A stretch of DNA of 38,071 bases. It comes from Bacteroidota bacterium (GTDB lineage: Bacteria; Bacteroidota; Bacteroidia; Bacteroidales; VadinHA17). The notes under the pieces are model-generated. The model did not search any database. It had not been told where the DNA came from and worked only from the letters and a program-made list of their open reading frames with translations. Below are positions 23,978-37,805 of the stretch, in pieces (position 1 is the first letter of the stretch; the number at the start of each line of letters is the position of its first letter). The stretch is from assembly GCA_030605195.1 (NCBI GenBank), contig JAUWBB010000004.1, positions 1-38,071 on the forward strand, written 5' to 3'. Made by a program: the position numbers and the translations under genes.

Positions 23978-26482
23978 ATGCCTGAAAACGAAAAGATTAT
24001 TAAGATCAACATTGAGGAGGAAATGAAATCGGCATATATCGATTATTCCATGTCGGTTATCGTTTCCAGGGCTTTGCCTGATGTTCGCGATGGATTGAAG
24101 CCCGTTCACCGGAGGGTTTTATATGGCATGTCGGAATTGGGATCCCTGTCAAACAAAGCATATAAAAAGTGTGCAAGGATAGTAGGGGAGGTGTTGGGAA
24201 AATACCATCCCCATGGTGATTCTTCGGTATATGAAGCTATGGTCAGAATGGCACAACACTGGTCGCTTCGATACCCTTTGGTTGATGGTCAGGGAAACTT
24301 TGGTTCAGTCGACGGAGATAGTCCTGCAGCCATGCGGTATACCGAAGCACGATTGAAAAAAATTGCGGAAGAAACCCTTTCAGACCTTGATAAAGACACA
24401 GTCGATTTTCAACTCAATTTTGACGACACACTAACAGAACCCACCGTTCTGCCTACAAGAATACCCACCTTACTCGTTAACGGAGCATCCGGAATCGCGG
24501 TAGGAATGGCTACCAATATGCCACCGCACAATTTAACGGAGGTAATCGATGCCATTATAGCTTATATTGAAAACAAGGATATCGAAACAAGTGAACTGCT
24601 TAATTATGTAAAAGGACCGGATTTTCCTACAGGAGGCATTATATATGGCTACCAGGGTATCAGGGATGCATATGAAACGGGGAAAGGCAGAATTGTAATG
24701 CGAGCCAGAACTGATATTGAGATCACACCTTCTGGCAGGGAAAAAATTATTGTCACCGAAATCCCGTACATGGTAAATAAAGCTGAATTAATCCGTAAAA
24801 CAGCCGACCTGATCAACGAAAAGAAGATTGAAGGGATCTCTTATATCAATGATGAATCGGACCGTACGGGAATGCGTATCGTAATCATCCTTAAAAAAGA
24901 TGCTACATCCAACATTGTTCTGAATAATTTGTATAAATATACCCAGCTTCAATCCACTTTTGCCGTTAACAATATAGCCCTGGTTAATGGAAGGCCTAAA
25001 GTCTTGACACTTAAATTGTTAATCAGTTATTTCGTAAAGCATCGCCATGAAATTGTTTTAAGGAGAACCCGGTTTGAAATGGAACAGGCAAAAAAACGGG
25101 CACATATCATTGAAGGATTGTTAACTGCACTCGATCACCTTGACGAGGTCATCCAGCTTATCCGTTCTTCAAAAACTCCGGAAGAAGCAAAAAACGGACT
25201 CATGGAAAACTTCGATCTGACCGAAGTACAGGCAAAGGCAATTTTGGACCTTCGTTTACAGAAGTTAACCGGGCTTGAGAGGGAAAAAATCAGGGCTGAA
25301 TATGAAGAACTGAAAAAACTGATCGAACATCTGAGCCAGATACTTCTTGATGAAAACCGCCAAATGAACATTATTAAGGAAGAACTATTCGAAATTAAAG
25401 AGAAATATGGTGATGACAGAAGAACCGAACTTGTTCCTGATGAAGGAGAGTTTAATCCGGAAGACTTTTATGCCGATGAAGATGTTGTAATCACCATTTC
25501 GCATCTGGGATATATAAAACGTACACCGCTTTCTGAATTTCGCCGCCAAAGCAGGGGAGGTGTCGGTGCAAGGGGTGGAGCAACCCGGGATGAGGATTTT
25601 CTTGAACACCTTTACATTGCCTCAATGCATAATACTATGCTGTTTTTCACCGAAAGAGGTAAGTGTTACTGGTTAAAGGTCTACCGGATTCCTGAAGGGA
25701 CAAAATATTCCAAAGGAAGAGCCATACAGAATGTGATAAACCTGGAACCCGAAGATAATCTCAAGGCATACATAAACGTTAAAAAACTTGACGATCAGGA
25801 ATACGTGAATAATAACTTTATCGTTCTTTGCACTAAAAAAGGAGTCATTAAAAAAACCTCCTTGGAAGCATATTCCCGCCCAAGGCAAAACGGTATCAAT
25901 GCCATCACTGTAAGGGAAGGAGACCAGTTACTCGAGGCAAAGATGACCAATGGCAATCATGAAATACTTCTGGCTGTAAGATCCGGGAGAGCCATCCGGT
26001 TTCCCGAAAAAAAGGTCAGGCCCATGGGCAGAACAGCTTCAGGAGTCAGGGGAATTGTTCTTTCCGGTGAACAGGACGAAGTTGTTGGAATGATTTGTGT
26101 TGAAGATGAAAGCGAAAATATCCTTGTGGTTTCGGAAAATGGATTTGGCAAGCGATCAAAAATAGAAGATTACAGGATTACAAACCGGGGTGGGAAAGGC
26201 GTGAAAACCATGAATGTTACCGAAAAAACCGGTAGTCTCATTGCCATTAAGGGAGTAATTGATACCGATGACCTGATGATCATTACCAAATTGGGACTGA
26301 CGATCCGTATGCCGGTTGCTGATATGAGAATTATGGGCAGGGCAACCCAGGGTGTAAAACTGATTAATCTTAAGGAAAACGATTCCATTGCATCGGTTGC
26401 CTATGTTGAAGTGAATAATGATGAAGAGAATGGAAATGGACATGAAAACGGGGATGTCATTGAACAGAATGATTCCAAATAA
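23978..26482 (+). CDS. gyrA: DNA gyrase subunit A
   Basis: [68 protein letters not shown]-terminal [10 protein letters not shown] repeats. Confidence 0.96.
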
Positions 26483-26568: not shown

Positions 26569-27717
26569 ATGAAACGAATAACAATTTTAATCATGCTTTT
26601 AGTTGGGTTTTTCCCTATTTTTGCACAAAAAGGCAAGGTTACCAGTGCATTGAACTACGTTACAACCGGGAATCTGGAGAAAGCCAAGGAGGCGATCGAG
26701 CCGGCAATGACGCATGAAAAATCAAAAGACTGGCCTAAAACACATTACGCAAAAGGAAGAGTTCTCCAGGCTGTTGCCGAATCAAAGGATACGAACACCA
26801 TGAAATTATACGAAAATCCTTTACCAGAAGCATTTAAGGAATACCAAAAAGCCATTGAACTGGACGAAAAAGGGAAAATAGAGAAAATAGTAAACCTCCA
26901 GTATCCGTTATTATCAAACGATTTTATCCAGTTAGGAATTGAAAAGTTCCAGGCAGGTGAACATAAGGAGGCCATGGAAGCCTTTGAATACTCACTCGAA
27001 ATCGGAAAAACACCTATGTTTGATGGAGCTGTTGATACCAGTGTTGTATTTAATGCCGGACTTTCAGCATACAATGCGAAAATATGGGACAAGGCTATCG
27101 TCTACTTTACACAGGCAAAAGATCTGGAATATGATGATCCGAACCTTTATCCTCTGATGAAAGAGTCTTACATGGAATCAGGTGACACATTAAGCGCTGT
27201 TAAATGCCTCCAGGAAGGTTTTGAAAAATATCCTGAAAATGAAGCGGTAATTATTAATCTGATCAATTATTACATTGAATCAGACGCTAATGAAAAAGCC
27301 CTTGAGTACCTTAATTTTGCAATAGAAACTGATCCTGATAACTATTCTTATTATTTCGGTAAGGGTCTTGCATATGAAAAGATGGATAGGGTAGATGAAG
27401 CAATCGAATCGTATAAAAAGTCGATTGAGCTTAAGGATGATTATTTTAATACCTATTACAATCTCGGAGCATTATATTTTAACCGGGGTGTTAACCTGAT
27501 CGAGATCGCCAATGAGATTAGGGACAATGAGGAATATATTAAAGCCAAGGCAAAAGGGGATGCCGAATTTGCAAAGGCATTGCCATATATGGAAAAAGGA
27601 CATGAAGTCAACCCGGAGGATGTTTCAATCATGGAAACCCTGAAGACCTTATACAGGCGACTACTAATGATGGATAAATATGCTGAAATGGATAAAAAAA
27701 TAAAGGGCGAAGAATAA
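26569..27717 (+). CDS. Secreted TPR-repeat protein
   Basis: Signal peptide MKRITILIMLLVGFFPIFAQ; several TPR-like segments (ALEYLNFAIETDPDNYSYYFGKGLAYEKMDRVDEAIESYKKSIEL). Confidence 0.88.
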   Translation: MKRITILIMLLVGFFPIFAQKGKVTSALNYVTTGNLEKAKEAIEPAMTHEKSKDWPKTHYAKGRVLQAVAESKDTNTMKLYENPLPEAFKEYQKAIELDEKGKIEKIVNLQYPLLSNDFIQLGIEKFQAGEHKEAMEAFEYSLEIGKTPMFDGAVDTSVVFNAGLSAYNAKIWDKAIVYFTQAKDLEYDDPNLYPLMKESYMESGDTLSAVKCLQEGFEKYPENEAVIINLINYYIESDANEKALEYLNFAIETDPDNYSYYFGKGLAYEKMDRVDEAIESYKKSIELKDDYFNTYYNLGALYFNRGVNLIEIANEIRDNEEYIKAKAKGDAEFAKALPYMEKGHEVNPEDVSIMETLKTLYRRLLMMDKYAEMDKKIKGEE

Positions 27718-27770: not shown

Positions 27771-27824
27771 AACCCTCTATTTAACATAATATATATTATG
27801 GGGCATCCGTAGCAAATTTACGAT

Positions 27825-28390
27825 CAGCTCTGCTGATTAACATAACATCAGCTATGTGGCTTTAGTTACATAGCGGTACCGCCAGCGCACAACCTGGCCC
27901 AAACATCCACCGGATGTTTGACCTATGTTAAAGTAAATTTGCGGTCAATTCAACACCATAACTCTATTTAAAAATCTTGCCCAGCTCCGCTGGTTAACAT
28001 AAAATCAGTTCCAGGACTTTAGTTCTGGAACGGTACCACTTTCACACATGCTGGCTCAAATGTCCACAAGACATTTGTCCTATGTTCAAAAGATTCCCAA
28101 TCAATTCAACACCATATAACTCTATTTGAAATATTGTCCAGTTCCCCTGATTAACATAAAATCAGACTCAATGAGACAAATTCTTTAGGAGCTTATGCGA
28201 ACTAAAGAATATATGTCGAATTAGTCCCGATAACGAAGTTAATCGGGATCTGATGACATTAGAACCTATAACCGGTCCAGATTTTATGCTTTGTCTGCCA
28301 AAGCCTTGGCGAAGGCAGATTAAAGTAAATTTGCGATCAATTTAGCACTAACTTATACTACGAAGCCACCAGGCGAAGTACTATATCGGC
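27825..28390. repeat. 157-bp-period structured repeat array (copies at 27825, 27982, 28139; third diverged)
   Basis: Frame CAGCTC[TC]GCTG[AG]TTAACATAA[CA]ATCAG-[stem]-ctttagtt-[stem']-GGTACC...CAA[stem2]...CCTATGTT...TCAATTCAACACCAT, with stems differing between copies but staying complementary. Confidence 0.85.
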
Positions 28391-28698
28391 ACCGAAATTA
28401 TGTTTAAGCAAATTCCCGGGAAATCAAGAAGTAAATTTTTCCGGGAAACTTTTCGTCAGCATTTTTCCTATAATTCAATGGTGAATCCTTCGTCTAGCTT
28501 ATGCATGGCCCGCATTTTTTTCTGGCCAACGCTTGCTTCTTCTTATAGTTCATCTTTAGTAACAACAAAGACAATTTTGTCATAGAAATCAGTCATGGTT
28601 TTTTTATAGGTTTATTTGATTAACTCAATATTGAAATAAAACATTTTTGCAAATGCGTATTCAGAAATGGGAAAAACCTGAATAACCTCTTTATAAGT

Positions 28699-29094
28699 TC
28701 ACAATCCAGTTGGATCAATACCTCCTTTTAATTCACCGAGTGCAATATATTTTTCATCAAAATGAATAATCGAATCTTTCCCTTTCTTAATTTCTTCAAT
28801 TAATCCTTTTATAGCATTTATTTTGTCATCTTCTGTTAGATAATTTAAAGACTTATCGGACAAACCGGAAGCTGTTAACAAACCTGCTCCAAGATCACTG
28901 ACAGTCAATAAATCTGCTGGGTATTTTATTTTGCCCGCTAGTGCTTTAAGAGCCTTTGCTTCTTCGACATACGGAACAGCGAGATAGTTTTTTTCTAATG
29001 CAAGCGAGATGAAACCTGCTCTGGTTCTCTCTCCGGGTGTTACTAAATCCGCTGCACTATTTATTGGATTGTCAATAATTATCTTTTCTGCCAT
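28699..29094 (-). pseudogene. Internally deleted/truncated AvaI/BsoBI-like type II restriction endonuclease remnant
   Basis: SAADLVTPGERTRAGFISLALEKNYLAVPYVEEAKALKALA...LLTASGLSDKSLNYL...NAIKGLIEE then directly ...IALGELKGGIDPTGL*. The ELKGGIDP motif is recalled from AvaI/BsoBI-like enzymes. Confidence 0.5.
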
Positions 29095-29615
29095 AGATAT
29101 ACACATTTGCGGATTTCAGTTCGCCCGTAATTTCCCATTTGCTGGCTACTGTTGCCTTTGCCTTTGGGTAGAACAAAAATTTTATTGATGTTAAAACCGA
29201 AGTTTTCCGCAAACTCCGATAATATTAAGTCAACGGGGATTTCTTCACCTCCATAGCAAACATTATCGTTTACCATTACGCAATAACCACCACTTTTCGT
29301 TATTCTTGCCATTTCAAACGTAACAAAACAAAGTTCCAGGAAGTAATTTTTAACCATCCTCGGAATGTTGTTGTTATTTAGTTTTCCAAGTTTATTCAAC
29401 TCATATAGAACAGAATTAACCTCTGACATAGCTGCTGAATTATTGTAAATATTCAGCACCTTTTCAAAAGTTCCCGGTCTTTGAATTGAAACATATAATT
29501 GATTTAAATAATCAATTTTTTCTTTGTTCTCAACCGTGCAAGAGAGCATTGTTTGCCGAAGGTTGCGTACGAATTCGTGATCATAGCCGAGATAAATCAA
29601 CTCTAATGAGTTGAT
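29079..29615 (-). pseudogene. C-terminal fragment of an amino-methyltransferase (N4/N6, M.AvaI-like); catalytic SPPY region absent
   Basis: LELIYLGYDHEFVRNLRQTMLSCTVENK...ITKSGGYCVMVNDNVCYGGEEIPVDLILSEFAENFGF...VLPKGKGNSSQQMGNYGR; no (D/S)PPY in the ORF. Confidence 0.6.
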
Positions 29616-29617
29616 TT
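29594..29617. repeat. Perfect 10-bp inverted repeat AAATCAACTC-taat-GAGTTGATTT at a gene-fragment junction
   Basis: Lies at the switch from the REase fragment frame to the methyltransferase fragment frame. Confidence 0.7.
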
Positions 29618-29899
29618 CCAATGATTTTGTTTTGTGGATTTAACTTCAACACCATAATACTTTTTAGCGATTATGTCAGGAAATTTTTGTCCGGAAATTA
29701 GTTCGATCGAATTCCAAAATGGAGTTCCAATAGCGTTAGCTTTCATTAAATCAAATACTTTATCTTCCAATTTTCTGCCAAGCAACTTCAAATAATCATC
29801 CGTTTTCTCCAATGCTTCTTTTTCAAGATTACTAACTGTCTTTTTTAATAAAGAGTGAAAATCTTCTAAATTAGGTTTAGAATTAACAGAAACTACCAT
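29603..29899 (-). pseudogene. N-terminal fragment of a PD-(D/E)xK restriction endonuclease
   Basis: SGQKFPDIIAKKYYGVEVKSTKQNHWKSTH*: PD...EVK catalytic layout, then abrupt end at the junction. Confidence 0.55.
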
Positions 29900-29904
29900 A
29901 TGTT

Positions 29905-31878
29905 TTATAATTTAAAGTATTTTGACCAAAGCTTTTCGATCCTCTTTGCCATATGATATGCTAACAATGGAGGGACTGCATTTCCAATCAACTTATATGC
30001 TGATGAAGGACTAACTAAAAACTTACGTCCATTTTGAGGAATTACAAAATCAAAATCTGGTGGAAATGTTTGAATTAATGCACATTCTCTTGGAGTAAGA
30101 CGTCTTTCATTAAGACAATTTCTTAATTCTTCAATTATCTTTCCACCATTATTAATTGACAACCGCCTATATTCAATGTTTCCATGATGTTCTGCTCTAA
30201 TTGTAGGACCAATTCCATTAGGATTAATTTCTGTTTGTCCCTGGCAGTGCTTCCCCATGTATTTCGCTTTTGAAAAATAAATTTGTGATGGATCAGTTGA
30301 ATCATCAGGTTCTTTAATATTTTGTAAAATATCCCTAAGCTTAACAGGACTTATACTCCCTTTGCATTTAGAAGTAAATGAATGTGAGGGTTTAGGATAT
30401 GGCACAAAGTTCTCACCAAAATTTCCTTTTTCAAATTCTTCAAGAATATCTGAACGAAGTTCTGACTTTTTGATGCCGATAAAAAAGATTCTCTCACGGG
30501 ATTGAGGAACCCCATAATCTGCTGCATGTAATACTTGAGGTTGAAGTACTATATATCCGTTTTCCTGAGCGCTGGCAAAGTCTTGCTGTATAATATCCTT
30601 TAAATCTAACAGATTCACTAATCCCTTAACATTTTCGGCAATAAACATTTTTGGTTTAGTAATTTCAATAACTTCCTTCATCCACATGTATAACTGCCCC
30701 CTGGTTTCAATAGAAGGATTGTTATTACCTATAAGTTTGCCATTGTGATCTTTGTGCGAATTAAATCCTTTTCTCTTACCGGATAGGCTGAAATCTTGAC
30801 ATGGAAATCCTCCGGTAACAATATCAATATTATCCGGGAAAATTTTTACATCTTATTTGTGTTGTTTTACAAGATTAACAATACTTTCAACGTGGTATAT
30901 CTCGGGTGAATATCCTCTTTTCTCAAAATAATTCACCCAAGCATATTTCGCAGTATTTATTATATCGTTGGCAAAAACGGTTTGAAACTTTGTTGGTCTG
31001 AGTTTTACATAATTCTTATCAACTTCTTTTTCAACGTAATCTGGATTAAGTGTAGTATTGACAGAATTTTTATGGACTATGAATCCACCTTCAAAACCAA
31101 GATCCATTCCTCCACAACCTGAAAAAAGTGATAAAAGTTTTATCGGTTTGCCTGGATTATTATAATTTCTTTTTTCATCATAATAAATTGACAATTGGGG
31201 CTCCCCCACCTCTAAAGAATCATTTTGAAAAAAATAATATTTACATCGCTTCTTTAAAACACATATATTACATTGTGGCCTTCTGGATTTACAAACTGAG
31301 GCAGCATAGTCAATGATTGCCCAATTTAACTTTTTACAATTTCGGACGTTAATGACATCTTGTGACAATTCTTGAAGTTCAATATCATTTCTAACATCTC
31401 TAAACTCTCTAAAATGGAAATACCTATTTAGAACACGTGCCATATTTACATCAAGCAAGGGGGCCCGCTTCTTAAGGATGAATAGTTCAAACGCATTAGC
31501 TATATAAAGAGTAGATAAGCTGGATTCTTGTAGTTCCACTTTTGTCTTTGGTAGTTCCCCGTCTTTTTCTTTCAACTCTTTAACAATTTTCATAATTCTT
31601 TTTGCCCTGTGTTTATAAAGCCCTAAGGGCCTTAAAATCGCTTCCAAGTCTTTTTCTGTTGCTTGAATTAGGGAATCCCAATTGGGATATTTATTAAAAA
31701 ACACATTATAATACTTTGCAACAGTTTCTGCTTTTGTACGTTGTAAAAGAATTTCGCTTAAAATAATTTCATAATTAGAAATACCTTCTCTGCGCCACGG
31801 AAAATACCTCTTATTATCATCAAACCAGGCTAAAAGCTTTTTGCGAAAGTATTTTACATCATTTCTGTATACCATCAC
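29905..31878 (-). pseudogene. HhH-GPD DNA glycosylase (MutY/EndoIII-like, Fe-S) fused to a C5-cytosine DNA methyltransferase; one in-frame TAA at 30853-30855
   Basis: N-term: LSEILLQRTKAETVAKYY, LGLYKHRAKRI, LLDVNMARVLNR, CKSRRPQCNICVLKKRC (C-x6-C-x2-C-x5-C). C-term: KLLSLFSGCGGMDLGFEGG (motif I); after the TAA, same frame, [21 protein letters not shown] (IV) and FIAENVKGL (VI), then RRLTPRECALIQTFPPDF, KLIGNAVPPLL. Confidence 0.8.
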
Positions 31879-32709: not shown

Positions 32710-33138
32710 TTAATCTAATGTTTGTATATAGTGAAATATCTTTTTAATACAATTATCACAATCTTTTTTAATATCATTTTCCCAAAATCTAAATACTTTC
32801 CAACCAAGTTTTGTTAATTCATCAATATTCTTAATATCTCTTTTTATATTGTTTTCTATTTTTGGAATCCAATATTGCCTATTGGCCTTTATTTTTTTCT
32901 TTTTAATTTTCCATTGAAAACCATGCCAAAATTCGCCATCAATAAATATCGCAATTTTGTATTTATTAATAACAATGTCTGGTTTTCCAGGTAAATAGCT
33001 CACATTAATTCGATAACGGATTCCAAAATTCCATAATACTTTTCTAAATAACAACTCTGGTTTAGTATTTTGAGAGTGAATTTTACTCATTAAGCGAGAA
33101 CGCTGCTTTGTTGTATTGAATCCGTATTTGGTTCGCAT
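32710..33138 (-). CDS. vsr: Very short patch repair (Vsr) mismatch endonuclease
   Basis: RSRLMSKIHSQNTKPELLFRKVLWNFGIRYRINVSYLPGKPDIVINKYKIAIFIDGEFWHG; overlaps the methyltransferase by 49 nt. Confidence 0.93.
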   Translation of the reverse strand: MRTKYGFNTTKQRSRLMSKIHSQNTKPELLFRKVLWNFGIRYRINVSYLPGKPDIVINKYKIAIFIDGEFWHGFQWKIKKKKIKANRQYWIPKIENNIKRDIKNIDELTKLGWKVFRFWENDIKKDCDNCIKKIFHYIQTLD

Positions 33139-34163
33139 TTTTTTATATCGTTCACTAGTTTTAGAACAGTTAGGTCTTTAAAAATCTTAGATGCAAGAGC
33201 ATAACTTAATTCTACTGGAACTGCATTCCCAATCATTTTATAACCTGTATTTAAGGTATCGTAGTAAAAAATGAAATCATCCGGAAAAGTTTGAATTCTT
33301 GCACATTCTCTTATTGTAAGCCTTCTATATAAGTGTTCTTTCCCAGGAATAAACCTCATTACGTCCTTACTAATCCTTTCCATTTTCGGGCTCTTCGGAT
33401 GAAGGGATGTTTGCCTGCCACTTGCCTGAAGCGTAAATGATGGTTTGTCCCAAGTCAGAACCCTATTTCTTGACATGAATATATAAGAATAGTCCCCCAC
33501 CCAATACTCATGATTAGGGATTTTGCATTTGTCTCCATTTGTTTTATTTCCATTTTTAAATCTTGCTTGAATTGCCAAATTTCGAATATCTTTAATAGCA
33601 TCTTTAACAGTTGGTTGTTTTTCTGACTTTTTTGGAAACTCAAATTTAAGATTCAAGTCATTTCGATAACCTACAAGAAAAATTCTTTTTCTATTCTGGG
33701 GCACATAATAATCTGCAGCATTTAAAACTTTAACAGCAAGATTATAACCTGATTTGCCTGAATTTTCTAATAATTCCTTTATCCTATTAAAGGATTCTAT
33801 ATTCCTTTTTGAAGTTATTCCTTCAACGTTTTCAGCAATAAAAAATAATGGCTCGTTTAAATCTATTATTCGTATGAAATCGAGAAATAGAGCACCTCTT
33901 TTATCCTCAAATCCTTTACCCTTTCCAGCATTACTCCAACTTTGACATGGAGGTCCTCCAATAATGCCAATGATTTTATTTGAAATATCCAGTGGATCAA
34001 TTCTTGAAATATGTCTTTTATCTAATTCTACATTTGAAAAATTTTTTTCATAAGTTTCCCAAACGCTTGGGGCATTATCGTTTGCCCAAATAATATTGAA
34101 TCCTGCTTTTTTAAAACCAAGGTCTAGTCCACCGCAACCAGAAAATAATGAAATTATATTCAT
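33090..34163 (-). CDS. DNA (cytosine-5-)-methyltransferase
   Basis: ISLFSGCGGLDLGFKKAGF (I), GGPPCQSWSNAGKGKGF (IV), FIAENVEGI (VI), YRRLTIRECARIQTFPDDF, MIGNAVPVELS (X). Confidence 0.95.
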   Translation of the reverse strand: MNIISLFSGCGGLDLGFKKAGFNIIWANDNAPSVWETYEKNFSNVELDKRHISRIDPLDISNKIIGIIGGPPCQSWSNAGKGKGFEDKRGALFLDFIRIIDLNEPLFFIAENVEGITSKRNIESFNRIKELLENSGKSGYNLAVKVLNAADYYVPQNRKRIFLVGYRNDLNLKFEFPKKSEKQPTVKDAIKDIRNLAIQARFKNGNKTNGDKCKIPNHEYWVGDYSYIFMSRNRVLTWDKPSFTLQASGRQTSLHPKSPKMERISKDVMRFIPGKEHLYRRLTIRECARIQTFPDDFIFYYDTLNTGYKMIGNAVPVELSYALASKIFKDLTVLKLVNDIKKCEPNTDSIQQSSVLA

Positions 34164-35171
34164 TTAAAATATTGATGCTTTATTTGATATTATTTCTTCT
34201 ATTATTTTATAAGAAGAAAACTTATTAAATCTGGTTTTGTTTATAAAATTTTTTAAAATTCTATAACGGTCGAACATGATTGTCTTATGAATATTTGTTC
34301 TGTCATGCCAATCACCGGTAGAATCTCTGAAGGATTGAGGTATAAACATCAAATAATTTGGGTATGTAGCTAAAGATATAAGCCTATCCCATTTGTCACC
34401 TTTTATTGAGGCTTGCTTCACTGGCCATTCTTTTGGACTACATGCACATTGAGCGAAATATATAGGAAAGCTCGACAACTTGTCCCCTAAAAAAGTTTTA
34501 CCAACTATATCAATGCCTCGATCGCCAGTGTCATATTTTGAAATTTCTTTTTCTTCTACTCTAACTTCTTCTCCTAAAAATTCGGATAACCAAATTAATT
34601 TATCCCAAAGCTTAGCTGATTTCCATCTAGTAGATTGATTTTCAGTATTGCTGCTTCCAAATAAGTGAACTTCTGAATTATTAGGCAAAATTTTTTCAAC
34701 CACCTCTTTGCAAGCTTTTTCAAAGCAACCTGTTAGTTCTTTTTTGAATTTTATTGTATACCTAAGGTTAGAACATAATAACAAGAATAAATACAACTTT
34801 TCATTAATTGATATATCTTTTTTAAAATTAATTGCTAAATTATTTTCTGTTAAAGAATAAGGATAATACTCATCAAATAAGTTTACCCTGCTTTCTATTA
34901 CTCGAAAGCTATCTTTAGCAATTTGATCCCACTTGTCTTTTTTCTCTGGTTTAGTTAATTTTTTTGTATTTTGGAGATCTTCTAAGTCCCCTTCTCCTAA
35001 GTCTTCATAAGGTTGGACTATATCATCAGTAAAGTCGTTTTGAGAATAAAATCCGTCCTTATTGGTTAAACATTTAAGTTCAATATAATCTGCCCATCTA
35101 TAATATTCATCAATTTTACAACGAGGCAGAGTATTTAGTTTTTTAAGAAAATAATCTATTTTTTCTTTCAT
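34164..35171 (-). CDS. Putative PD-(D/E)xK-like nuclease/restriction endonuclease in methyltransferase-vsr operon
   Basis: GDRGIDIVGKTFLGDKLSSFPIYFAQCACSPKEWPVKQ resembles D...QxxxxK-type REase cores; zero-gap adjacency to the methyltransferase. Confidence 0.45.
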   Translation of the reverse strand: MKEKIDYFLKKLNTLPRCKIDEYYRWADYIELKCLTNKDGFYSQNDFTDDIVQPYEDLGEGDLEDLQNTKKLTKPEKKDKWDQIAKDSFRVIESRVNLFDEYYPYSLTENNLAINFKKDISINEKLYLFLLLCSNLRYTIKFKKELTGCFEKACKEVVEKILPNNSEVHLFGSSNTENQSTRWKSAKLWDKLIWLSEFLGEEVRVEEKEISKYDTGDRGIDIVGKTFLGDKLSSFPIYFAQCACSPKEWPVKQASIKGDKWDRLISLATYPNYLMFIPQSFRDSTGDWHDRTNIHKTIMFDRYRILKNFINKTRFNKFSSYKIIEEIISNKASIF

Positions 35172-35177
35172 GAAAAA

Positions 35178-36296
35178 TTATACTATTTCTTCAGATTCAA
35201 GATTAATCAATTTTGAATTAACCAACTGATACAAATCCTTGGCTAGTCTGTAAATTTGTTCTAATGTATCGGCCTGAATATCTGTTGGTTTATCTACCAA
35301 ATGAGAATAATCCCTTGCTATTTCTAAATAAGATAATGAGTCATTTATGTTTTCTTGAAATATTTCACGAGGATAAACTGTTAATCGAGAGGCTTCATCA
35401 AGAGTTTTACCTTCTTTGAAGGCTTGTAAAGCTTTAGGAAATTCTTCGTCTAAAATTTTATTTAACTTTGGCAGGTTTCTTGATTCTCCTAACCTTGTAA
35501 AGCCTTCAGTATTTTTTTCAAATATCCATCTTGTTACATCCTTTAACTTTTCTTGATTTAAATGTTTAATAGGTTCCTCCGATTCAAGATCAATCCCAAT
35601 ATATTTACCAATATTTTCTCTATGTAAAGCAGTATAAAATACTCCAAAATCAAATCTTTCTTCTCTAAGATTAGATATATCATAAAATTCTTCTTCTTCA
35701 ATTTTTATATAGATATCTACTCCAATTAATAGTAGCCTAACGTAATGAGCTTTACTGCCTATTATTTTGGCCAAAATTTTGCATTGCCCATAAAAATCTC
35801 CTTGGGGAATTGTTTTTTTTAATTGACGCAAGTACTTTGCCTTAGCCAATGAATCCCATGCTTGTACACCTGTTATATGTTTGTATCCTAAATAAGCTAT
35901 AATATCTTCTCGCTTATTAAAAATTATTGAAGGAATTTCTTGAGGTATATTTTCAGTTTTAGCTTCATTTAAAATCTCTTCTATTGTTTTTTTCTTCTTT
36001 GTTGCTAGTTCTGGGTTATTTAGAAGTTTCACAGCTGTTAGCCTTCTATTTCCTTCAGCAACCTCATATTTCCCCTCATCCTTTGGTACAACTAAAATAG
36101 GTTCTGCTGGGAAATAACCTTCTTCCCCAATAGATCCCATCAATTCAGTAATATTTTCAAATTGTAGCATCCATTCCAATACTGAGTTTTCATAATCTGA
36201 GTCATTTTTCTTTCTGCGAAGATTCTCAGGCAATCTTGGATTTTCAGAATCAAAAACAAGATTATCTATTGATATGGATATTATTTCTGTATTCAT
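35178..36296 (-). CDS. ParB/sulfiredoxin-fold N-terminal domain protein
   Basis: ISIDNLVFDSENPRLPENLR...ITELMGSIGEEGYFPAEPILVVPKDEGKYEVAEGNRRLTAVKLL, a ParB-like boxI/GNRR pattern; first gene of the operon. Confidence 0.7.
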   Translation of the reverse strand: MNTEIISISIDNLVFDSENPRLPENLRRKKNDSDYENSVLEWMLQFENITELMGSIGEEGYFPAEPILVVPKDEGKYEVAEGNRRLTAVKLLNNPELATKKKKTIEEILNEAKTENIPQEIPSIIFNKREDIIAYLGYKHITGVQAWDSLAKAKYLRQLKKTIPQGDFYGQCKILAKIIGSKAHYVRLLLIGVDIYIKIEEEEFYDISNLREERFDFGVFYTALHRENIGKYIGIDLESEEPIKHLNQEKLKDVTRWIFEKNTEGFTRLGESRNLPKLNKILDEEFPKALQAFKEGKTLDEASRLTVYPREIFQENINDSLSYLEIARDYSHLVDKPTDIQADTLEQIYRLAKDLYQLVNSKLINLESEEIV

Positions 36297-36696: not shown

Positions 36697-37524
36697 CTAT
36701 GCCGCAACTCTGTACAATTCCGCAGGGATACTTCTTCCAATACCCTGATGATGCAGTTCGTGATTGTAATAGTTGAAATACTTCTTCAATCCCTGGTAAA
36801 GCTCTACTCCGTCTTTAGCAGGATGCAGGTATACATAATCATATTTCAAAGATCTCCAGAACCTCTCAATAAAGATGTTGTCAATAGCTCTACCCTTGCC
36901 ATCCATACTGATCTTGATATCCTCGGTATTCAAGTGTTCTACCCATTCACTACAGGTAAACTGGCTTCCCTGATCAGAGTTGATGATCTTAGGCTTCCCA
37001 TATTCTTTAACAGCCTGTTTCAGGACAGACAAGGAAGCTTCGGCTTCAAGAGTATTAGATAGACCCCATCCAACAATATACCGGCTATATATGTCAATTA
37101 TAGCCGGTAAATACAGAAATCCATTCTTCATGGGGATATACGTTATGTCGATAGCCCACACCTGATTTGGTCGATTTATTTTCAAACCCTTCAACAAATA
37201 GGGATGAATGTATTTCTTATGTCCCAACTTACTGAGATTCTTCTTCGGATAGATGGCCATTAAACCCATCAGACGGAGTAATCTCCGGACTCTCTTATGG
37301 TTTACTGTATATCCCTGACCTAGCAGATGGTCCTGCATCCTCAGCACTCCAGCAGTAGGATGATCCAGATAATGTATATCCATCATGCGCATAATCATCA
37401 GATTCTCATTTCTCTCTCCCTGGGACTTGTAATATAATCCACTCCTGTGAACAGATAAAATATCACATTGTCGCCTGGCGCTTAAAATATGTTGGTTATC
37501 AACAAGTTCACGATGTTGAATCAT
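36697..37524 (-). CDS. IS3-family transposase OrfB (DDE integrase core)
   Basis: NQVWAIDITYIPMKNGFLYLPAIIDIYSRYIVGW, INSDQGSQFTC, IDNIFIERFWRSLKYDYVY, YNHELHHQGIGRSIPAELY. Confidence 0.95.
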   Translation of the reverse strand: MIQHRELVDNQHILSARRQCDILSVHRSGLYYKSQGERNENLMIMRMMDIHYLDHPTAGVLRMQDHLLGQGYTVNHKRVRRLLRLMGLMAIYPKKNLSKLGHKKYIHPYLLKGLKINRPNQVWAIDITYIPMKNGFLYLPAIIDIYSRYIVGWGLSNTLEAEASLSVLKQAVKEYGKPKIINSDQGSQFTCSEWVEHLNTEDIKISMDGKGRAIDNIFIERFWRSLKYDYVYLHPAKDGVELYQGLKKYFNYYNHELHHQGIGRSIPAELYRVAA

Positions 37525-37805
37525 AGTCCGATCTTCTTTAAGCTTTTTTTTAAAAAGTCGTTCTTTATTTCCAACTGCCCGATCTTGGCATAAAGCTTCT
37601 CTGTATCTACTTCTGCTTCAGCATCGGATTTCTTATCAAATAACTCGCTTGATCGCTCAACGAACTCTTGCTTCCACTTACTAATCATGTTCGGATGTAC
37701 CTCAAAACGTTTTGATAATTCTGCCATAGATTCTCGCTCCTTGAGCGCCTCAATGGCAACTTTGGCCTTAAAGTCCCCTGAAAATTTTCTCCTTGTTTTT
37801 CTCAT
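37521..37805 (-). CDS. IS3-family transposase OrfA (HTH)
   Basis: KTRRKFSGDFKAKVAIEALKERESMAELSKRFEVHPNMISKWKQEF; overlaps OrfB by TATGA. Confidence 0.93.
   Translation of the reverse strand: MRKTRRKFSGDFKAKVAIEALKERESMAELSKRFEVHPNMISKWKQEFVERSSELFDKKSDAEAEVDTEKLYAKIGQLEIKNDFLKKSLKKIGL
37544..37551 (-). promoter_or_regulatory. A8G slippery sequence for programmed -1 frameshift OrfA-OrfB
   Basis: Minus strand TTTTTAAAAAAAAGCTT; OrfB frame is -1 to OrfA and open from here (KKKLKEDRTMIQHREL). Confidence 0.65.

What the first reader, a model, noticed from the sequence alone, without database searches (positions are those of the whole stretch)
27825..28240. 157-bp repeat array whose hairpin stems change together between copies
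Copy A (27825) and copy B (27982) share their framework, but stem 1 is GCTATGT-ggctttagtt-ACATAGC-GGTACC in A and GTTCCAG-gactttagtt-CTGGAAC-GGTACC in B: nearly every stem base differs while pairing is perfect and the 10-nt loop and GGTACC are conserved. Stem 2 also covaries (CAAACATC/GATGTTTG vs CAAATGTC/GACATTTG, 5-nt loops). This implies selection on or templating of structure (an RNA, ssDNA, or structure-copying repeat). Copy C (28139) keeps the lead-in but has other hairpins (CTTTAG/CTAAAG, CCCGAT/ATCGGG) and about 78 extra bp.
Basis: seen in the sequence. Interest (0 to 1): 0.75.

Follow-up and report, generated by a model that had tools for sequence, protein, structure and literature searches.

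The report
Folding recombination-site array beside chromosomal dif
The hairpin repeats sit right beside dif, the single site where the host's Xer enzymes separate joined chromosomes, and they look like single-stranded DNA landing sites of the kind the cholera-toxin phage uses to hijack those enzymes, here found across the Bacteroidota and often next to anti-phage genes.

Summary
In detail: copies A, B and C exist, with covarying, perfectly paired stems. At 27779-27806, directly before copy A, lies a 28-bp dif (XerD arm ATTTAACATAA, 6-bp centre, XerC arm). It occurs about once per genome, downstream of gyrA-TPR in 39 of 40 relatives checked, where GC skew flips sign.

The repeat unit is a forked hairpin. 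This is the architecture of the CTXphi attP(+) site. On 24 units from relatives, 93.5% of cells pair against 79.9% shuffled, with 109 double changes against 29. The unit lies on the XerC side of dif in some relatives and is absent in others.

In other Bacteroidota, dif-plus-hairpin blocks directly flank cargo: an Argonaute system, a methyltransferase system, phage genes. In the window an R-M island follows.

Best explanation: stacked, partly decayed attachment sites of Xer-exploiting elements, used as folded ssDNA. Integration itself is inferred. RNA, REP/RAYT and integron readings fit worse. New variant of a known kind.

The parts
27779..27806 (-). chromosomal dif: XerD arm 27779-27789 (ATTTAACATAA), 6-bp centre 27790-27795, XerC arm 27796-27806 (TTATGGGGCAT), read here from the XerD side
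   Evidence: XerD arm equals that of V. cholerae dif1; about one strong site per genome in 101 of 114 family genomes, 39 of 40 within about 2 kb of the TPR gene; GC skew flips sign here
27812..27942 (+). unit A: P0 stem 27812-27821/27933-27942; hairpin 0 27824-27836; XerD-like arms 27837-27845/27924-27931; stem 1 (XerC-arm position) 27851-27857/27868-27874; GGTACC 27875-27880; stem 2 27900-27908/27912-27920
   Evidence: relatives aligned and counted
27973..28095 (+). unit B: P0 27973-27978/28090-28095; hairpin 0 27981-27993; XerD-like arm 27994-28002 with 28081-28086; stem 1 28008-28014/28025-28031; GGTACC 28032-28037; stem 2 28057-28064/28070-28077
   Evidence: XerC-arm position no longer resembles dif
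28139..28350 (+). unit C: hairpin 0 28139-28149, XerD-like arm 28151-28159, long loop with two hairpins, right half with CCTATA (28265-28270) and GATTTTATG (28280-28288), then a 32-nt hairpin insert (28289-28320) interrupting the XerD-like arm
   Evidence: a similar module in G001, G013 and G022
28355..28420 (+). right half of a fourth unit (CTATATCGGCACCGAAATTATGTTTAAGCAAATTC)
   Evidence: sequence; inverted dif-like match at 28383
28463..28475 (+). inverted XerC-arm half site TTTTTCCTATAAT, far end of the array
   Evidence: more complete counterparts in relatives (L013, L018)
26569..27717 (+). TPR protein gene downstream of gyrA (23978-26482), the conserved left neighbour of dif
28699..31878 (-). 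restriction-modification genes, apparently broken: BsoBI-like REase fragment (28699-29106), C5 methylase C-terminal part (29905-30687), glycosylase/nicking-enzyme-like ORF fused to a methylase N-terminal part (30853-31878)
32710..36296 (-). second R-M-type module: Vsr endonuclease, C5 methylase, unknown 335-aa protein, ParB-like protein (PD-Lambda-5_A related)
   Evidence: the methylase, unknown and ParB-like proteins are 62-67% identical to a module between two direct element copies in an Ekhidna MAG

Best explanation
The array is a stack of partly decayed Xer attachment sites beside the chromosome's own dif. Each unit holds two dif-like sites in inverted orientation. When one DNA strand is exposed it can fold into a forked hairpin whose stem recreates a XerC/XerD binding site, as the single-stranded genome of CTXphi does. 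I infer that host XerC then exchanges one strand pair with dif, that replication completes the insertion, and that dif is restored on the same side each time, so insertions pile up on the XerC side. The stems covary because the duplex, not its exact sequence, must be rebuilt, within the limits of Xer binding. Some elements carry defence or phage genes; the R-M island right of the window's array is probably such cargo. Shown: location at dif, architecture, covariation, presence/absence among relatives, cargo between direct copies elsewhere. Inferred: ssDNA integration, XerC catalysis, mobility of this particular array.
For: (1) dif identity: XerD arm as in V. cholerae dif1; 39 of 40 gyrA-TPR downstream regions carry it; about one strong site per genome in 101 of 114 family genomes and 139 of 199 phylum genomes; GC skew positive left and negative right in 9 of 10 relatives and in the window, the tenth having only 3.4 kb on the right. 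(2) Of 38 readable sites, 9 have a full unit and 5 one arm within 220 nt on the XerC side; full-unit-like pairs occur in 5 of 403 background windows. (3) Architecture: one site has a 6-nt centre, the other about 9-11 nt, inverted; CTXphi has 7 and 12, inverted, about 90 nt apart. (4) Covariation: 93.5% of cells paired against 79.9%, 109 double changes against 29, covariation score 0.370 against 0.125, slid controls 35-42%; P0 mean longest helix 8.9 against 5.4 permuted. (5) The XerC-position arm matches its own genome's dif XerC arm at 5.4 of 9 against 2.4 shuffled, and the XerD arm tracks dif's third base (Fisher p = 0.003; hand-made table). (6) Dif-plus-inverted-site blocks recur as direct repeats around cargo in G252 (17.6 kb) and G336 (9.2 kb), and a shorter dif-like repeat bounds 8 kb in G237, with methylase, Argonaute and phage genes. 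(7) XerC- and XerD-like proteins are encoded in the genome.
Against: No autonomous ssDNA genome carrying the unit was found: nothing convincing in phage records and one weak plasmid hit, and the viral-contig scan did not complete. Tandem units of 106-157 bp without genes are not simply explained by phage integration. Stem 1 of B, and of L208 and L068, no longer resembles a XerC arm. Some copies lie away from gyrA-TPR (G000:C130, several Cytophagales contigs). In G237 the unit lies beyond the phage, so it may be older than it. No experiment shows that this dif works, and the window's R-M island has no visible far boundary. Sampled skew on scaffolded MAG G004 was uninformative.
Confidence: 0.72

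Rival explanations
1. A structured non-coding RNA or 3' UTR element encoded in tandem behind gyrA-TPR; covariation reflects RNA structure.
For: Strong RNA folds and stem covariation; many copies lie directly 3' of gyrA-TPR.
Against: No Rfam family matches. A single dif precedes the units, their arms resemble dif and track its sequence, 24 of 38 relatives have dif without any unit, and the blocks flank cargo as direct repeats. G-U-type cells are few.
Confidence: 0.06
2. REP- or MITE-like palindromes that gather near the terminus; their stems are kept complementary by template switching at quasipalindromes rather than by selection.
For: REP-like hairpins do sit inside some units (the insert in copy C; several loops in Cytophagales copies). 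Template switching would change both arms at once.
Against: Arms keep dif-like sequence at the XerD and XerC positions, invariant and variable pairs alternate along the stem, and units at dif lie on its XerC side. Template switching alone predicts no such constraint. It may still help produce the double changes.
Confidence: 0.12
3. A host accessory of dif (for example a structure that affects FtsK or Xer at dif) rather than a mobile element's attachment site.
For: Fixed position and orientation next to dif in distant orders.
Against: 24 of 38 family genomes and about 16-17 of 20 wider genomes have dif without it, tandem copy number varies within a genus, and blocks flank foreign cargo.
Confidence: 0.07
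4. Integron attC sites: folded ssDNA sites recombined by an integron integrase, which this genome does encode.
For: G000 has an integron integrase; attC sites are also folded, variable in sequence and conserved in structure; GTTAAAT fits the attC R-box consensus as I recall it.
Against: Only 4 of 60 relatives have the integrase, and element-bearing genomes such as G001, G013, G022, G010 and G018 do not. Several genomes have TTATGTCAA arms, which break the GTT that I recall as essential in attC but match their own dif. Units sit at dif, not at an integrase locus.
Confidence: 0.03

Closest known systems
CTXphi-type IMEX of Vibrio cholerae (attP1/attP2, attP(+) forked hairpin; PMC3089051, PMC5357621)
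   Same: Located at dif; two dif-like sites inverted, close together, with unequal centres; folds into a forked hairpin; no recombinase of its own seen in the window; the review reports that integration leaves one functional dif and two dif-like remnants.
   Different: Other phylum; tandem gene-less units; an extra lead-in hairpin and outer stem; compensatory divergence of the stems across many species; neighbouring cargo is often defence genes, not a filamentous phage.
Bacteroidetes microvirus proviruses (BMV; PMC3091885)
   Same: Integrate at dif-like sites in Bacteroidales without an integrase; some carry an extra dif-like site near one end, compared by the authors with CTXphi.
   Different: Those are whole phage genomes found by capsid genes; the window has no phage genes next to the array.
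Integron attC sites
   Same: Folded single-strand recombination sites conserved in structure more than in sequence.
   Different: Different recombinase, different boxes in part of the family, different address.
Acinetobacter pdif modules (PMC6449649, PMC7399989)
   Same: Genes thought to be mobilised between Xer sites.
   Different: Plasmid-borne sites, to my knowledge used as double-stranded DNA; not folded, not at chromosomal dif.

Membership tests
CTXphi-type IMEX | insertion at the chromosomal dif | tested here: met
CTXphi-type IMEX | two dif-like sites in inverted orientation within about 100 nt | tested here: met
CTXphi-type IMEX | unequal central regions (7 and 12 nt in CTXphi) | tested here: met
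   6 against about 9-11 nt in simple units; in window A and B the longer side also holds stem 2
CTXphi-type IMEX | strand folds into a forked hairpin | tested here: met
   DNA folds z = -12.1 to -4.1; prediction only
CTXphi-type IMEX | XerC catalyses a single strand exchange on ssDNA | not testable with these tools
   needs an assay
CTXphi-type IMEX | unit carried by an ssDNA phage genome | tested here: inconclusive
   rolling-circle phage genes lie at dif in G237 but the unit flanks them; no phage record has the unit
Integron attC | cognate IntI present where the sites are | tested here: not met
   4 of 60 relatives
Integron attC | R box GTTRRRY (recalled consensus) | tested here: not met
   several genomes have GTCAAAG
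REP/RAYT or MITE | dispersed intergenic copies, many per genome | tested here: not met
   few copies per genome, concentrated at one site
REP/RAYT or MITE | associated RAYT or other transposase | not tested
   no search for RAYT genes was made
Microvirus provirus (BMV) | capsid and replication genes between dif-like repeats | tested here: not met
   none among the window ORFs scanned
Known RNA family | match to an Rfam model | tested here: not met
   only tRNAs in the window

The most novel reading that the evidence does not exclude
Across the Bacteroidota, dif is a stacking platform for defence cassettes: each cassette pairs a folded single-strand Xer site with cargo (Argonaute, restriction-modification, other anti-phage genes), and the host's housekeeping XerC/XerD insert it beside dif, giving an integron-like system with no integrase of its own.
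Probability: 0.3. Interest if true: 0.88.

Novelty: new variant of a known kind. Interest (0 to 1): 0.72.

Why it matters
Folded-ssDNA use of the Xer system is experimentally known from vibriophages and was only suggested for Bacteroidetes microviruses. Here a large natural series of such sites, spread over at least two orders, shows compensatory stem evolution, which makes the folded-site model testable from sequence. It also pins down dif for many Bacteroidota (just past gyrA-TPR in the family studied) and marks the XerC side of dif as a place to look for defence genes and ssDNA proviruses.

Tried and rejected
Rfam search: only tRNAs. I first read the spaced Cytophagales copies as integron-like gene cassettes; annotation of G138, G139 and G148 showed ordinary genes between copies, so I dropped that for those loci. 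GIY-YIG and ImmA-like ORFs inside some elements look like secondary insertions. GC skew sampled along one single-contig but scaffolded MAG gave no clean shift; flanks of ten other genomes were used instead. Phage and plasmid databases gave no convincing match. The viral-contig scan failed nine times. Literature searches found no description of this family, within an open-access library only. The integron integrase was tested and set aside.

Full report
What is there. The window is a 38-kb contig of a Bacteroidales-type MAG (3.04 Mb, 393 contigs). Coordinates, spacing, stem 1, GGTACC and stem 2 are correct. The units contain more structure than stated: an outer stem P0, a lead-in hairpin, and an arm pair TTAACATA/TATGTTAA, so each unit is one forked hairpin. 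A half fourth unit and an inverted half site extend the array to about 28475.

Relatives. DNA and pattern searches found the unit in many genomes, nearly all Bacteroidota (Bacteroidales and Cytophagales), a few copies each. A tblastn check then showed that many of these loci, found without any gene being asked for, lie immediately 3' of gyrA-TPR in the same orientation.

The address is dif. Fetching the region behind TPR in 40 relatives showed a nearly invariant CTATTTAACATAATATTAATTATAGG in 39 of them, whether or not the repeats are present. Its reverse complement has the anatomy of a dif site: XerC arm, 6-bp centre, XerD arm TTATGTTAAAT, the last identical to V. cholerae dif1. It is found in 101 of 114 family genomes, almost always as one strong copy, and in 139 of 199 well-covered genomes of the phylum. 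GC skew is positive on the gyrA side and negative on the other in 9 of 10 relatives and in the window. XerC- and XerD-like proteins are encoded. The dif assignment is therefore well supported but not proven by experiment.

Presence and absence. Of 38 readable relatives, 24 have dif alone, 9 a full unit and 5 a single arm within 220 nt on the XerC side; full-unit-like pairs occur in 5 of 403 background windows. Of 20 genomes elsewhere in the phylum, three (L247, L248, L251) clearly have inverted dif-like sites there, and L237 has one possible arm.

Architecture. In simple units the left site reads XerD arm, 6-nt centre, XerC-like arm, and the right site XerC-like arm, about 9-11 nt, XerD arm, inverted. 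When one strand folds, the arms pair and the extra nucleotides (GGTACC and relatives) form a one-sided bulge. CTXphi has the same layout: centres of 7 and 12 nt, inverted, about 90 nt apart, folding into a forked hairpin that XerC recombines with dif (PMC3089051, PMC5357621). That arm resembles the dif XerC arm of its own genome (5.4 of 9 matches against 2.4 shuffled), and the XerD arm tends to follow the host dif at its one variable base (p = 0.003 on a hand-made table).

Covariation. Sixteen distinct stem-1 pairs (including window B) match at 111 of 112 positions against 81.9 permuted. The stem list was taken from units in the orientation with the lead-in hairpin upstream. P0 helices average 8.9 bp against 5.4 permuted. 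On a MAFFT alignment of 24 units, 93.5% of cells pair (shuffled 79.9%), 21 of 35 pairs vary on both sides, and sliding the partners by 1-3 columns drops pairing to 35-42%. Units entered this set by having both arms, and the set was filtered to units with at least 6 of 7 stem-1 pairs, so arm and stem-1 numbers lean upwards; P0 and the lead-in hairpin were not selected for, and they covary too.

Cargo. In G336 a dif-plus-inverted-site block recurs 9.2 kb away and encloses an Argonaute/Cas4-like-nuclease pair and a kinase/phosphatase pair; in G252 a block recurs at 17.6 kb around a C5 methylase, GHKL ATPases and phage virion and lysis genes; in G237 a short dif-like repeat bounds 8 kb with a rolling-circle Rep and endolysin. 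In an Ekhidna MAG two copies of a 720-bp version enclose a ParB-like/unknown/methylase module that is 62-67% identical in protein to genes right of the window's array. In sister genome G001 the array is followed by other genes and a half dif in direct orientation. Defence enrichment was not tested statistically.

Conclusion. Location, architecture, covariation and presence/absence are shown. That the units act as folded ssDNA Xer sites is inferred from their match to CTXphi; that the window's R-M island arrived this way is plausible but unproven, since no far boundary is visible before the contig end. The gene-less tandem units and the missing autonomous carrier remain unexplained.

Noticed in passing
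G000:C142:8537-9481 (L226:1450-2418): The window's genome encodes an integron integrase (TIGR02249, 407 bits), rare among its relatives (4 of 60).
   Followed up: partly
L009/L061, G001:C352: A GIY-YIG ORF with its own 14-bp inverted ends (ACCCTGTGAAATAA) is inserted inside the XerD arm of a dif-adjacent unit.
   Followed up: no
window 28289-28320: A 32-nt REP-like hairpin (CTTTGTCTGCCAAAGCCTTGGCGAAGGCAGAT) interrupts the right XerD-like arm of copy C between TTTTATG and TTAAAG.
   Followed up: no
L258 (G237:C2:458800-467500): An 8-kb provirus with a rolling-circle Rep (PF23343) and endolysin at dif, possibly of a little-known ssDNA phage group.
   Followed up: partly
L260 (G336:C1:2666900-2681000): A long prokaryotic Argonaute with a Cas4-like nuclease and a kinase/PP2C pair in a 9.2-kb segment between direct dif-block repeats.
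   Followed up: partly
L042:1275-4471 and window 33090-36296: A shared module of ParB-like protein, unknown 333-335-aa protein and C5 methylase; the unknown protein matches no family in the libraries searched and may be a new restriction enzyme.
   Followed up: partly
L104, ORF on G134:C19: An ORF that looks like an ImmA-type metallopeptidase (by eye, not searched) sits inside a hairpin of the long Cytophagales element.
   Followed up: no
L042, L098, L102-L104: Cytophagales carry a 600-900 bp version with many extra hairpins, some covarying between copies, starting TATTATGTTAARTAG and ending at a dif-like site, usually in the same orientation within a contig; its role away from dif is unclear.
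   Followed up: partly
window 36697-37805: IS3-type transposase pair at the right end of the R-M island.
   Followed up: no
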